DNA of 64,000 nt from Vicingaceae bacterium (GCA_019429185.1 JAHYJH010000001.1:36821-100820), one strand, 5' to 3'; shown: positions 37,326 to 41,791, numbered from the stretch's first letter. The notes: generated by a model not told the origin, from the letters alone. Translations and numbers: made by a program.

Positions 37326-39572
37326 ATGAGAAAAAAATTACTTAAAAACAGTTGCCTTTTACTACTTATTTTTTGTAGTTATTCATCTTTAGTTGCCCAA
37401 AGTCAAGCTCAACTTATAAAGATTGGAGATCAACTCTATGCAGAGGGAGATTACTATGCTGCTTCTTTATGTTACAGCCAAGCCATGGATTTAGACTCTA
37501 GCTTTTTAGAATTACGATTCAAATATGCAGAATCGTTGCGTATGTACAATGAATATGAGAAAGCAGAATGGTACTATTTTTCAATTTATCGAGAAGATAG
37601 AGGAAGAATTTATCCATTAGCTCCCTTTTGGTATTCAATGATGTTGAAATATAATGGAAATTACAATGAAGCAAAAAAATCATTTAAACGCATAAAAAAC
37701 ATTTATAAAGATAGAAAAGGATTTTATTACCTAAAAGTGGTTCAAGAAATAAAATCATGCGAAAAAGCATTAGAAATTATAAAAGATACCTTGTTGATTG
37801 ATATTAAAAATGTGGGAGCGAATGTAAACACCTACAACAGCGAGTTGGGAGGGAGGTTAATTTCAGATTCTGTTTTAATTTACGCTTCGTTGCGTGATGA
37901 AAAAATGAAAGATGATAACCAGATTTCAGACACTTCACTCTATTTAACCCGTTTGTTTTCGGCTGTAAAAACAGACAATGATTGGGTTAATAGCACTAAA
38001 TTAGAAGAAAGCATTAATATTCCTAATTTTCATATAGCCAATGGCTGTTTAAATGAAACAAAAGATGTTTTTTATTTTACTAAATGCGATAGAAAATTCA
38101 GTTGTAAGATTTTTGCAATTGCATACAAAAACGGTGCATTTATACCTCCTGCTTATGAAGTAAAAAACGTAAACATAGCTGATTTCACTTCCACACAACC
38201 TTTTGTTACTACTATTAATAATAAAGAAGTGCTGTTTTTCTCTTCAAACCAACCCGGTGGTTTTGGAATGATGGACATTTGGTACGCACAAAAAAACGGT
38301 ACTGAATTTTCTTCGCCTGTAAATGCAGGTATAAATATTAATAGTATTGAAGATGAAGTAACACCTTTTTACAACCATAAAGACAGCTCGTTATACTTTA
38401 GCTCTAATTGGCATGAAGGATTAGGTGGTTTTGATATTTTTAAAAGTAAAACCGACCTAATTACTTTTGGAAATCAAGAAAACATTGGATTTCCCATCAA
38501 TACAAGTGTAAACGATTTTTATTATTACGAACGCAATAATTTAGTATTATTAACCTCAAATAGAAAAGGTTCCTATACAAAAAAAGGAGAAACTTGTTGT
38601 AACGATATATATTATTATGAAATTCCTGACACAATTATTCCTATATACACAACTTTAGAAGAGTTGAACAGGTATTTGCCTGTAAAACTATATTTTCATA
38701 ATGATTTTCCCGACCCAAGAACAAGAGATACACTTACACAACAAACCTATTTACAAACCTATAAAGAATATACCCGATTATACAATCAATATCGCAGAGA
38801 ATATGCAAAAGGACTAAAAAATCAAGAAAAAATTGATGCTGAAGTCGAAATTGATGAACTTTTTAGCAACTATATTGATAAAGGAGAAAAAGATTTAGAG
38901 CTATTCACACCTTTATTAGTTAAAGAATTAGAACAGGGAAATAGCATAACATTAACAATTAAGGGTTATGCAAGCCCATTGTCAAAAACAGATTATAATG
39001 TGAATTTAACATTGCGAAGAATTTCAAGTTTAATTAATTATTTGAATGAATTTGAAAATGGAAAAATTTCACCCTATATAAATGGAACTGCTGAAAATGG
39101 AGCCGTTTTGAGTTTCATAAAAGTTCCTTTTGGCGAATATCAATCGGATGAAATTAGTGATGATTTAGCCGATCAACGAAACTCAGTTTATAGTCCTGGT
39201 GCTGCGTTGGAACGTAAAATAGAAATAATTGCCATAGCCACCTCCGACACCAATAATCTGGCATTAGATGGAAGTGAATTAGAAAAATTGCCACTACTTA
39301 CCTTTAAAGATAGCATTTTTGAATTTGAATCGAATGAAATGGAAAAACGAATTCGATTTATTAATAATGGTGAAGTACCACTCAAAATTTTTGAGGCTAC
39401 TTTTACAAGTCAAGGGTTTGAAGTTGATTTTTCAAAAGAAGAAATTCCTCCTTTTGAAATTCAATACCTAACAATAAAAAGAAGTAGTGCATCTTCAAAG
39501 AAATGCCAAGTTACTTTCTTAACTAACGGAGTTCCTAATCAAATATCAAAACAAATTGTAGTGAAGGAGTAA
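37326..39572 (+). CDS. TPR/PD40/OmpA-like outer membrane protein with C-terminal Ig-like extension
   Basis: N-terminal TPR-like GDQLYAEGDYYAASLCYSQAM; PD40-like FFSSNQPGGFGMMDIWYAQ; OmpA-like ITLTIKGYASPLSKTDYNVNLTLRRISSLINYL. Confidence 0.8.
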   Translation: MRKKLLKNSCLLLLIFCSYSSLVAQSQAQLIKIGDQLYAEGDYYAASLCYSQAMDLDSSFLELRFKYAESLRMYNEYEKAEWYYFSIYREDRGRIYPLAPFWYSMMLKYNGNYNEAKKSFKRIKNIYKDRKGFYYLKVVQEIKSCEKALEIIKDTLLIDIKNVGANVNTYNSELGGRLISDSVLIYASLRDEKMKDDNQISDTSLYLTRLFSAVKTDNDWVNSTKLEESINIPNFHIANGCLNETKDVFYFTKCDRKFSCKIFAIAYKNGAFIPPAYEVKNVNIADFTSTQPFVTTINNKEVLFFSSNQPGGFGMMDIWYAQKNGTEFSSPVNAGININSIEDEVTPFYNHKDSSLYFSSNWHEGLGGFDIFKSKTDLITFGNQENIGFPINTSVNDFYYYERNNLVLLTSNRKGSYTKKGETCCNDIYYYEIPDTIIPIYTTLEELNRYLPVKLYFHNDFPDPRTRDTLTQQTYLQTYKEYTRLYNQYRREYAKGLKNQEKIDAEVEIDELFSNYIDKGEKDLELFTPLLVKELEQGNSITLTIKGYASPLSKTDYNVNLTLRRISSLINYLNEFENGKISPYINGTAENGAVLSFIKVPFGEYQSDEISDDLADQRNSVYSPGAALERKIEIIAIATSDTNNLALDGSELEKLPLLTFKDSIFEFESNEMEKRIRFINNGEVPLKIFEATFTSQGFEVDFSKEEIPPFEIQYLTIKRSSASSKKCQVTFLTNGVPNQISKQIVVKE

Positions 39573-39574
39573 GT
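39501..39574 (+). repeat. 74-bp direct repeat, copy 1 (3' end of OmpA-like gene)
   Basis: AAATGCCAAGTTACTTTCTTAACTAACGGAGTTCCTAATCAAATATCAAAACAAATTGTAGTGAAGGAGTAAGT, identical to 41718-41791. Confidence 0.97.
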
Positions 39575-39686
39575 TTAATTTTTACCTTTTTTTTGCCAAA
39601 GTTTATTTGGCGGTGGCTTGTTCTTTCGGTCGCTTCATACAGTTCCATTTTTTTCCTTTCGTAACACACGTTTCACAAAGTGTTAA

Positions 39687-40184
39687 TTATTCAGTTCTTG
39701 TCAAATCGTTATAATCAACTTCAAATAGTTTGTCTTTTTCTTCATATTTTATATAACAAGTTTTGTCGTCTTTCAGAGCTGAAATTATTGCATATTTAGA
39801 AGCAAACATTTTTTTATAAATAACTTTATCTCCGACCTTAAAACCTTTGAAGGATATATTTCCCGCATTTCCCCAAACATCTCCCGATACAGCATAATAA
39901 GTATTCTTCTTCGTTTTTACTGAATATAATTTTACATTCATTAAAAATTCACCACCTGGTGTTTTTTTTACTAATTCGTTTATTGCTTCTTCAATATATT
40001 TCGCTTCTGATTTTTTTAATTCTTTATCACTGCTATTCGTGAAACTGCTTACTAAAGCATAATTGGAATTTAGACTCACATTACGAGTTGAAATCATATT
40101 AATGCTTCCAATTTGTTTTAAAGTTACGCTGCTACAAGAGGTAAGAATAGTTGTTACGGTTAAAATCATAATTATTTTTTTCAT
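39687..40184 (-). CDS. Hypothetical lipoprotein
   Basis: MKKIIMILTVTTILTSCSSVTLKQ lipobox. Confidence 0.65.
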   Translation of the reverse strand: MKKIIMILTVTTILTSCSSVTLKQIGSINMISTRNVSLNSNYALVSSFTNSSDKELKKSEAKYIEEAINELVKKTPGGEFLMNVKLYSVKTKKNTYYAVSGDVWGNAGNISFKGFKVGDKVIYKKMFASKYAIISALKDDKTCYIKYEEKDKLFEVDYNDLTRTE

Positions 40185-40504
40185 AGTTATTTTCTTAGTT
40201 CGTTTGTATTTATTTTATTTGTTTAATTTTTTTAATAATTACTACTATTTTTAAACTTCCCACTTTCAAAAGTCCACTGATAATAAAAGCCACGAAGGTT
40301 TCTCTGAATTTTAATCCGCAAACTTTAAGTCATTCAAAATCTTCAATTGTTTTTGAATATGGTATCATTTTCACATCTTCGTTTTATGAAACACAAGCCA
40401 CAATTTCCCTATCATTATCAATAATTGTCCTGCCTACACAAAATTCGTTTCCAAGGTAAAATGTCAGTCAAATATTTGGGGTGAATTTATATTTCTTTAT
40501 AGCA

Positions 40505-41521
40505 CTACTTTTTAACAATATACGCTAAATATGACTCTTTTACAAAATCTTTTACAGGAGTCCATAATGTTAGATTATCTCCATCCCTTTCAAAAATTTT
40601 TCCGTGATTTTTAGCTCCAAAATTTGCCATTTGTTCAAAATTACCACGAAATTTTTCAATATTTTCGCATTGTTTCTCAATAACACTAAAACTAACAATG
40701 TCCTTTTGCGATAATTGTTCCATCACCTTAATTAAAATCTTGCTATTAGTTTGATTTGGTTTATTTAACCATCTAGGTATTCGTCTTTTAACTTTTTCTA
40801 TTTCATTTCTTTTATAATCCAAATCATTAGTATTTAATTCGATTTTCTCTATAAATTGATTATTGGAGTTCTTAGATTCCATTATATCAATTGTATTTGT
40901 CAATTCAATTTCAATACTTTTTAAAGCCAAGTCAATAATGTCCTTAGGAAATTTTTCGCAAGCATCAACTTTTATAAATTCAATGATTTTACTTTTATAT
41001 TCCTCTGACGTTAAATAGTCAACTGCGTCTAAGCTTTGAATTTGATTTCTGCAATAGTTTATTAATGTGTCAAGTTTAAAAGACTGCTTACTAAATAATT
41101 CTATAAATTTTAAACCATCTTGAGCATTATCATTAAACTCAATATTCATAATTTCTACAGGTACTCTGCAATTTCCATCTTCGTAAAAAACATGAATCCT
41201 GTCATTTATTAATAAACCAACATTTAGTTTTAGTTGACGAAAATATGAAAATAATTGTGAATCATTTCTTTCTATGTATTTTTTGGTCGGTTTTTTAAGT
41301 TCCACAACAAACAAATCTTTTTCATGATTTTTGACGATAATGTCTGGTTTTAAAGAATTTGCTGAACCAATGTCAATTTTTCTTTTTTCTTCAATTTCCT
41401 TATTGAATCTAGACCAACCCAGTTTTTCAAATATATTTACTATCTCAGATTGAAATAAGTCTTCCGCAGAGGTCTTATTAATCTTTATTAGATAGCAGAT
41501 TTCATTCCACTTATTTTCCAT
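40505..41521 (-). CDS. Stand-alone PD-(D/E)XK nuclease-like protein (HsdR N-terminal-like)
   Basis: KPDIIVKNHEKDLFVVELKKPTKKY: D...ExK motif as in type I restriction R-subunit N-termini. Confidence 0.65.
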   Translation of the reverse strand: MENKWNEICYLIKINKTSAEDLFQSEIVNIFEKLGWSRFNKEIEEKRKIDIGSANSLKPDIIVKNHEKDLFVVELKKPTKKYIERNDSQLFSYFRQLKLNVGLLINDRIHVFYEDGNCRVPVEIMNIEFNDNAQDGLKFIELFSKQSFKLDTLINYCRNQIQSLDAVDYLTSEEYKSKIIEFIKVDACEKFPKDIIDLALKSIEIELTNTIDIMESKNSNNQFIEKIELNTNDLDYKRNEIEKVKRRIPRWLNKPNQTNSKILIKVMEQLSQKDIVSFSVIEKQCENIEKFRGNFEQMANFGAKNHGKIFERDGDNLTLWTPVKDFVKESYLAYIVKK

Positions 41522-41717
41522 ACTTCATTTTTAAGTTTAATGTTTGTCTGTCGGTTTTTCATGTTTGCAAACAATGTAGTTCGTCTTAAAACCCTCCATT
41601 AATTCATCAAAAATAGGTAAAAAACGAAAACAAAAGGAGAGATTTGGCAAAAGTTTTTGTAAACAATGGTAAAACATTTAGAGAAAATAAATTGGATTAA
41701 AAAGGCTAAAACAATGA

Positions 41718-41791
41718 AAATGCCAAGTTACTTTCTTAACTAACGGAGTTCCTAATCAAATATCAAAACAAATTGTAGTGAAGGAGTAAGT
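41718..41791 (+). repeat. 74-bp direct repeat, copy 2 (orphan 3' end of OmpA-like gene)
   Basis: Identical to 39501-39574; not part of an ORF here. Confidence 0.97.

What the first reader, a model, noticed from the sequence alone, without database searches (positions are those of the whole stretch)
39501..41791. 2.2-kb insertion at the 3' end of an OmpA-like gene bounded by an exact 74-bp direct repeat, carrying a PD-(D/E)XK-like nuclease
Seen: the last ~72 bp plus stop of the gene at 37326-39572 (39501-39574) recur identically at 41718-41791, where they form no ORF. Between them are only a small lipoprotein (39687-40184) and a stand-alone protein with the D...ExK pattern KPDIIVKNHEKDLFVVELKKP (40505-41521), both on the opposite strand to the host gene. 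The host ORF is intact because the insert restored its 3' end. Reconstitution of a gene 3' end with a duplicated vestige is the established geometry of site-specific island integration at gene ends, but no integrase is present inside. Inference: a minimal, non-autonomous gene-end-targeting cargo element, possibly a defence gene.
Basis: partly seen in the sequence, partly recalled or inferred. Interest (0 to 1): 0.82.

Follow-up and report, generated by a model that had tools for sequence, protein, structure and literature searches.

The report
Gene insertion leaving duplicated gene end
Two foreign genes, a predicted nuclease and a small lipoprotein, sit just after a membrane-protein gene whose last 74 bases occur again beyond them; the same kind of insertion recurs at many unrelated genes in this bacterium, so it looks like a general way of adding genes without breaking their neighbours rather than a special gene-end-seeking element.

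Summary
An exact 74-bp repeat (39501-39574 and 41718-41791), found nowhere else in the genome, brackets a 2.1-kb segment with a lipoprotein gene and a PD-(D/E)XK nuclease gene and no integrase. A scan of 1.38 Mb of the same genome found at least six more insertions with this geometry: 1-2 cargo genes, a 42-105-bp repeat, a reconstituted host gene and a vestigial copy beyond the cargo. Sister genomes carry empty sites for four of them (pyrC, cvfB, an M23 peptidase, hemL) and a near-empty site for a PBP1a gene. Against a 3'-end-specific integrase: 5' ends are duplicated too, intergenic cases exist, junctions share no evident core, and no tyrosine recombinase was found on the carrying contigs. 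In the most informative case (M23) the vestige matches the native end at 9 of 12 differing sites, so the functional end probably came in with the cargo. Best reading: additive recombination of incoming DNA carrying a gene end plus cargo, close to the 'insertion with long target duplication' of Helicobacter pylori. In the window case both flanks are rearranged relative to sister species, so no clean empty site exists there.

The parts
37326..39572 (+). host gene, 748 aa outer-membrane/gliding-type protein with intact 3' end
   Evidence: ORF; 94% identical orthologue in sister genome G005, where it follows a PorP/SprF gene
39501..39574 (+). left copy of the 74-bp repeat: functional 3' end and stop of the host gene
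41718..41791 (+). right copy of the 74-bp repeat: vestige without ORF
39575..41717 (.). inserted cargo segment, G+C 27.7%
   Evidence: no other full copy in the own genome
39687..40184 (-). small lipoprotein (165 aa), scattered Bacteroidota family
   Evidence: LPAM_1 signal just below cut-off; 280 homologues, best other than itself 58% identity
40505..41521 (-). stand-alone PD-(D/E)XK (HSDR_N_2-like) nuclease, 338 aa; D60, E74, K76 and downstream Q89, S92, Y93 conserved
   Evidence: Pfam PDDEXK_3/HSDR_N_2 just below cut-off; 60 homologues up to 86% identity besides itself; alignment; model pLDDT 85, N-terminal domain like DrdV, BpuSI, Cas4, HsdR
41529..41720 (-). nuclease upstream region, also found upstream of an unrelated gene on contig C219 and partly on C60 and C173
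41911..41940 (+). end remnant of a CHU_C-type gene that precedes the symporter in sister genome G005
   Evidence: sequence comparison, inferred
37076..37305 (+). multicopy repeat separating the TPM gene from the host gene; a matching copy lies next to the native TPM partner gene on contig C194

Best explanation
The segment is one of many additive insertions in this genome. Incoming DNA carrying a short copy of a resident gene's end joined to foreign cargo recombines with that gene. The incoming end becomes the functional end, the cargo follows, and the displaced native end remains beyond the cargo as a vestige. Shown: the geometry, its recurrence at unrelated genes and at either gene end, empty sites in sister species, and (M23 case) that the vestige resembles the native copy. 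Inferred: that RecA-type homologous recombination is the driver, either as single-crossover integration of a circularised fragment or as homology-anchored illegitimate integration, with selection keeping only events that leave genes intact. In the window case the cargo is a predicted PD-(D/E)XK nuclease plus a lipoprotein, with 0 of 74 differences between the copies, hence a recent event or a closely related donor. The nuclease is probably an orphan restriction-like or defence enzyme (inferred).
For: Further insertions in 1.38 Mb of own sequence: pyrC with Fic cargo (84 bp, 96%), cvfB/S1 with a DUF7948/CHU_C protein (about 96 bp, 100%), M23 peptidase with NlpC/PGA_cap protein (80 bp, 86%), TIGR01777-type epimerase with Fic (42 bp, 88%). 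5'-end mirror cases: PBP1a gene with HATPase and STAS-like genes (105 bp, 100%), hemL with a Por_Secre_tail protein (83 bp, 81%). Cargo domains. Intergenic cases include a flotillin/NfeD-type pair between sucA- and sucB-like genes. Sister genomes have the flanks adjoining for pyrC (G005), cvfB (G001), M23 (G005) and hemL (G002), and 380 bp apart for PBP1a (G001). M23: 12 differing sites, G005 matches the vestige at 9 and the functional end at 3; pyrC: vestige matched at 2-3 of 3. In the low-copy scan no such repeat pair was seen to disrupt a conserved gene. A ComEC-like protein is present, below the family cut-off. PMC3240628 reports gene-end duplications of 109-950 bp, which its authors ascribe to single crossover of a circular molecule with the chromosome.
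Against: In the window case the two copies are identical, so native and incoming end cannot be told apart, and there is no syntenic empty site. A repeat of 42-105 bp is short for RecA recombination. hemL polarity is mixed between clades. No donor genome with the same cargo next to the same gene was found. Competence was not demonstrated.
Confidence: 0.58

Rival explanations
1. Insertion with long target duplication in the strict sense: a transposition-like event makes a staggered break of about 70-100 bp in the recipient, cargo is inserted and both ends are filled in, so both copies are of recipient origin.
For: Geometry and the association with restriction-like genes match what is described for H. 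pylori (PMC1643837, PMC2749054, PMC4978471). Three cases have 100% identical copies (window, cvfB, PBP1a). Both gene ends are used.
Against: M23 and pyrC: the vestige keeps native states and the functional end differs, which a duplication of recipient sequence does not predict.
Confidence: 0.2
2. Non-autonomous integrative elements with att sites inside gene ends, moved by a recombinase supplied in trans.
For: Displacement of the native end by an element-borne end is the classical outcome of integrases that target gene ends. Five clear PF00589 matches plus one marginal one exist elsewhere in the genome.
Against: 5'-end and intergenic cases, different target gene each time, no evident shared junction core, unrelated cargoes, no integrase found on the carrying contigs.
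Confidence: 0.13
3. Ancestral tandem duplication of the host gene with a decayed second copy.
For: Direct repeat geometry.
Against: The right copy is 100% identical yet stops abruptly at 74 bp, with unrelated sequence upstream; sister genomes have one close copy of the gene.
Confidence: 0.02
4. Assembly artefact of a metagenome-type bin.
For: Draft of 232 contigs rich in repeats; both flanks of the region are non-syntenic.
Against: Several repeats are diverged (81-96%), recurrent and matched by sister-genome empty sites. The odd gene order is also explained: contig C230 ends inside a repeat element of the kind in which contig C194 ends, and the two ends share the 8-bp flank GAAATCTT, so the order is probably real.
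Confidence: 0.05

Closest known systems
Insertion with long target duplication (Nobusato et al. 2000, Gene 259:99; cited in PMC1643837, PMC2749054, PMC4978471)
   Same: Insert flanked by a long direct repeat of target sequence; associated with restriction-related genes; recognised by comparison with relatives
   Different: Here the cargo is diverse (Fic, NlpC, T9SS-secreted, STAS, flotillin) and at least one functional end appears to be the incoming, not a duplicated recipient, copy; host is a Bacteroidota-type genome. The original paper could not be read here.
Homology-facilitated illegitimate recombination and single-crossover integration of circularised fragments (PMC3240628; PMC5361080)
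   Same: Homology anchor at a gene end, foreign DNA added next to it; single crossover gives gene-end duplications of 109-950 bp; displaced native remnants are retained in the Vibrio T6SS arrays
   Different: Classical HFIR generally deletes recipient DNA at the other end; here recipient sequence is retained
Gene-end-targeting integrative elements (icd or tRNA type; own knowledge)
   Same: Functional gene end supplied by the insert, native end left as distal vestige
   Different: No integrase, no evident common att core, 5' ends also used
Minimal mobile elements of Neisseria
   Same: Small recombinase-free cargo between conserved genes, thought to move by homologous recombination (own knowledge; papers listed, not read)
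   Different: That model does not call for a duplicated gene end
HSDR_N/PD-(D/E)XK nucleases (DrdV, BpuSI, HsdR, Cas4)
   Same: D...ExK motif with conserved downstream Q and Y, predicted fold of the N-terminal domain
   Different: Stand-alone 338-aa protein with its own C-terminal domain; no methyltransferase or helicase partner in the insert

Membership tests
Insertion with long target duplication | Insert flanked by a long direct repeat of target sequence | tested here: met
   74 bp exact; 42-105 bp in other cases
Insertion with long target duplication | Empty site with a single copy in a relative | tested here: inconclusive
   Met for pyrC, cvfB, M23, hemL and nearly for PBP1a; for the window locus G005 has a single copy but both flanks differ
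Insertion with long target duplication | Both repeat copies derive from the recipient | tested here: inconclusive
   Window copies identical; M23 and pyrC point the other way
Site-specific gene-end integrative element | Encodes or neighbours its own integrase | tested here: not met
   No PF00589 match on C230 or on the other carrying contigs; serine recombinases were not searched for
Site-specific gene-end integrative element | Common att core at junctions | tested here: not met
   Junctions of six insertions compared by eye share no sequence
Site-specific gene-end integrative element | Insert-borne end restores the gene, native end displaced | tested here: inconclusive
   Supported for M23 (9 of 12 sites), untestable for the window
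Additive homologous recombination (single crossover or HFIR-like) | Incoming homologous end replaces the native one, which is retained | tested here: inconclusive
   Supported for M23 and pyrC, untestable for the window; donor not found
Additive homologous recombination (single crossover or HFIR-like) | DNA uptake or RecA dependence | not testable with these tools
   Only a ComEC-like protein below cut-off was found
PD-(D/E)XK nuclease superfamily | D-(D/E)xK active-site motif and fold | tested here: met
   E74, K76, Q89 invariant and D60 at least 90% conserved in 34 homologues; model resembles restriction and Cas4 nucleases, best E 0.003, probability up to 1.0; Pfam scores just below cut-off
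Known anti-phage defence system | Match to a catalogued defence gene | tested here: not met
   Only a weak Cas4 hit in PADLOC, E 2e-4

The most novel reading that the evidence does not exclude
The insertions are products of a dedicated gene-adding system: small cargo units that always carry a host gene end and are integrated, at 5' or 3' ends alike, by machinery encoded elsewhere, so that essential genes serve as insertion sites without being broken.
Probability: 0.12. Interest if true: 0.85.

Novelty: new variant of a known kind. Interest (0 to 1): 0.52.

Why it matters
How single genes without mobility functions enter bacterial chromosomes next to essential genes is poorly understood. A genome with about seven or more such insertions per 1.4 Mb, each with its vestige and most with an empty site in a sister species, makes the question of duplicated target versus incoming gene end directly testable by polarity counts.

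Tried and rejected
Diversity-generating retroelement reading (repeat at a gene 3' end with a second copy downstream): no reverse transcriptase ORF in the insert, and the two copies are identical, without adenine substitutions. Integron cassette reading: the upstream repeat of the nuclease recurs only on C219, C60 and C173, and no attC-like pairing was established. Tandem gene duplication: rejected. Misassembly as the cause of the odd gene order: made unlikely by the shared 8-bp flank of the two repeat halves on C230 and C194. Donor genomes for the nuclease cargo could not be read: the GTDB scan found only relatives up to 43% identity, and the viral scan one relative. Sequence search of the PDB with the nuclease profile found nothing. 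Several apparent repeat pairs were paralogous genes and were discarded (L117, L160, L123, L187).

Full report
Observation. The exact 74-bp repeat is present at the stated coordinates, spacing 2217 bp, and occurs nowhere else in the 3.66-Mb assembly. The left copy is the last 23-24 codons and stop of ORF 37326-39572; the right copy is non-coding. Between them are a 165-aa lipoprotein gene and a 338-aa gene, both on the minus strand, with lower G+C (0.277) than the window (0.323).

Neighbourhood. The window ends at the end of contig C230. In five same-genus genomes the host gene follows a PorP/SprF-type gene orthologous to window 62815-63861 (the host gene is cut by a contig end in G001). Here it lies 24 kb away from that gene, behind a TPM gene (36637-37074; TPM by my reading of the sequence) that in the sister genomes is followed within a few bases by a second gene of the kind; in this genome the second one lies on contig C194. 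The right flank, a sodium:alanine symporter gene, is on another contig in G005, preceded by a CHU_C-type gene of which only the last codons remain here. The restriction-modification genes 44251-48258 are a further insertion: in G005 the symporter and the gene at 48578 are adjacent. Contig C230 ends inside a high-copy element with inverted ends (GTTACTACTCAGCC...), and C194 ends inside the same kind of element; the two ends share the 8-bp flank GAAATCTT. I infer that they are the two sides of one element copy, so a block of about 26.5 kb from the host gene to the PorP gene sits between the two TPM genes, bounded by inverted copies of a repeat of about 180 bp. Reads were not available to confirm this.

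Recurrence. I fetched 1.38 Mb of the same genome and searched for host-gene ends repeated nearby. Besides the window, 3'-end cases are: pyrC on C140 (L139; Fic cargo), a CvfB/S1 gene on C29 (L195; DUF7948/CHU_C cargo), an M23 peptidase gene on C125 (L132; NlpC/P60 plus PGA_cap cargo) and a TIGR01777-like epimerase gene on C60 (L081; SoFic-like Fic cargo). Mirror-image 5'-end cases are a PBP1a-type gene on C126 (L133; HATPase and STAS-like cargo) and hemL on C196 (L158; Por_Secre_tail cargo), with a further one in a Flavobacteriaceae bin (L076, ung). Some gene names here (pyrC, M23, PBP1a, hemL, ung, epimerase, sucA/sucB, flotillin/NfeD) rest on my reading of the translations, not on a family search. 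A separate low-copy repeat scan added intergenic cases, for example flotillin/NfeD-type genes between sucA- and sucB-like genes on C152; none of its pairs looked like a disrupted conserved gene. In that scan the CvfB case was set aside as high-copy because a common repeat follows its stop codon, and the epimerase and hemL cases fell below its thresholds.

Empty sites and polarity. Sister genomes have the gene directly next to the sequence beyond the vestige for pyrC (G005), cvfB (G001), M23 (G005) and hemL (G002); for PBP1a (G001) 380 bp separate them; none was found for the epimerase. In the M23 case the functional end and the vestige differ at 12 sites; G005 matches the vestige at 9 and the functional end at 3, and the downstream flank of the vestige is the native one. 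One of the 12 is the boundary base. The pyrC case points the same way with 3 sites. In hemL the vestige leans to G001/G005 and the gene matches G002-G004. The window, cvfB and PBP1a copies do not differ, so polarity cannot be read there. The M23 gene is also less similar to G005 in its last 470 bp than in its first 550 bp, which would fit a longer imported tract.

Mechanism. A strict duplication of recipient sequence predicts that the non-functional vestige drifts away from the relatives; the M23 case shows the opposite. A site-specific gene-end integrase predicts a common core, a preferred end of the gene, and a recombinase; none was found. Incoming DNA with a gene end plus cargo, added by recombination while the native end is kept, accounts for both gene ends, the varied repeat identity (donor divergence) and the polarity. 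Gene-end duplications of 109-950 bp from single-crossover integration of a circular molecule are reported in E. coli (PMC3240628); displacement with retention of native remnants is proposed for Vibrio T6SS loci (PMC5361080); long target duplications with restriction genes are reported for H. pylori (PMC1643837, PMC2749054, PMC4978471). The original 2000 paper was not read and the 2010 survey by the same group was not held.

Cargo. The 338-aa protein has 60 detected homologues; in an alignment of 34, E74, K76, Q89, S92 and Y93 are invariant and D60 nearly so. The model (mean pLDDT 85) resembles the nuclease domains of DrdV and BpuSI, Cas4 and HsdR, with best E-value 0.003. It is absent from all five same-genus genomes and, but for one marginal hit, from the other relatives searched. 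The lipoprotein belongs to a scattered Bacteroidota family. A defence role is plausible but there is no catalogued match.

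Noticed in passing
window 63862-64000; contigs C109, C136, C137, C147, C194 and others: High-copy short element with inverted ends GTTACTACTCAGCC...GGCTGAGTAGTAAC, at which several contigs break; one complete copy (C136) has an apparent 8-bp target duplication AATTAAAA.
   Followed up: partly
window 37076-64000 with C194 end: A block of about 26.5 kb from the host gene to the PorP gene appears to sit between two TPM genes that are adjacent in sister species, flanked by inverted copies of a repeat of about 180 bp.
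   Followed up: partly
window 44251-48258: Restriction-modification insertion: HTH regulator, fused C5 and N6 methyltransferase (835 aa) and a 390-aa type II restriction enzyme, between genes that are adjacent in G005.
   Followed up: partly
L139:1911-4562, L195:13678-17187, L132:5077-8455, L081:2241-4519, L133:3342-8043, L158:11181-14283: Further insertions with duplicated gene ends in the same genome, each at a different gene.
   Followed up: yes
L076:981-3044: 5'-end duplication of an ung-like gene with two small genes inserted in a Flavobacteriaceae bin, suggesting the pattern is wider than one genus.
   Followed up: no
L150:12723-15019; L180:6162-8630; L137:7881-9431; L153:5060-7551: Intergenic direct repeats of 70-140 bp flanking 1-3 genes, including a flotillin/NfeD-type pair between sucA- and sucB-like genes.
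   Followed up: partly
L059:1900-3143 (contig C219): Sequence that looks like the RNA part of a group II intron, near the second copy of the nuclease upstream region.
   Followed up: no
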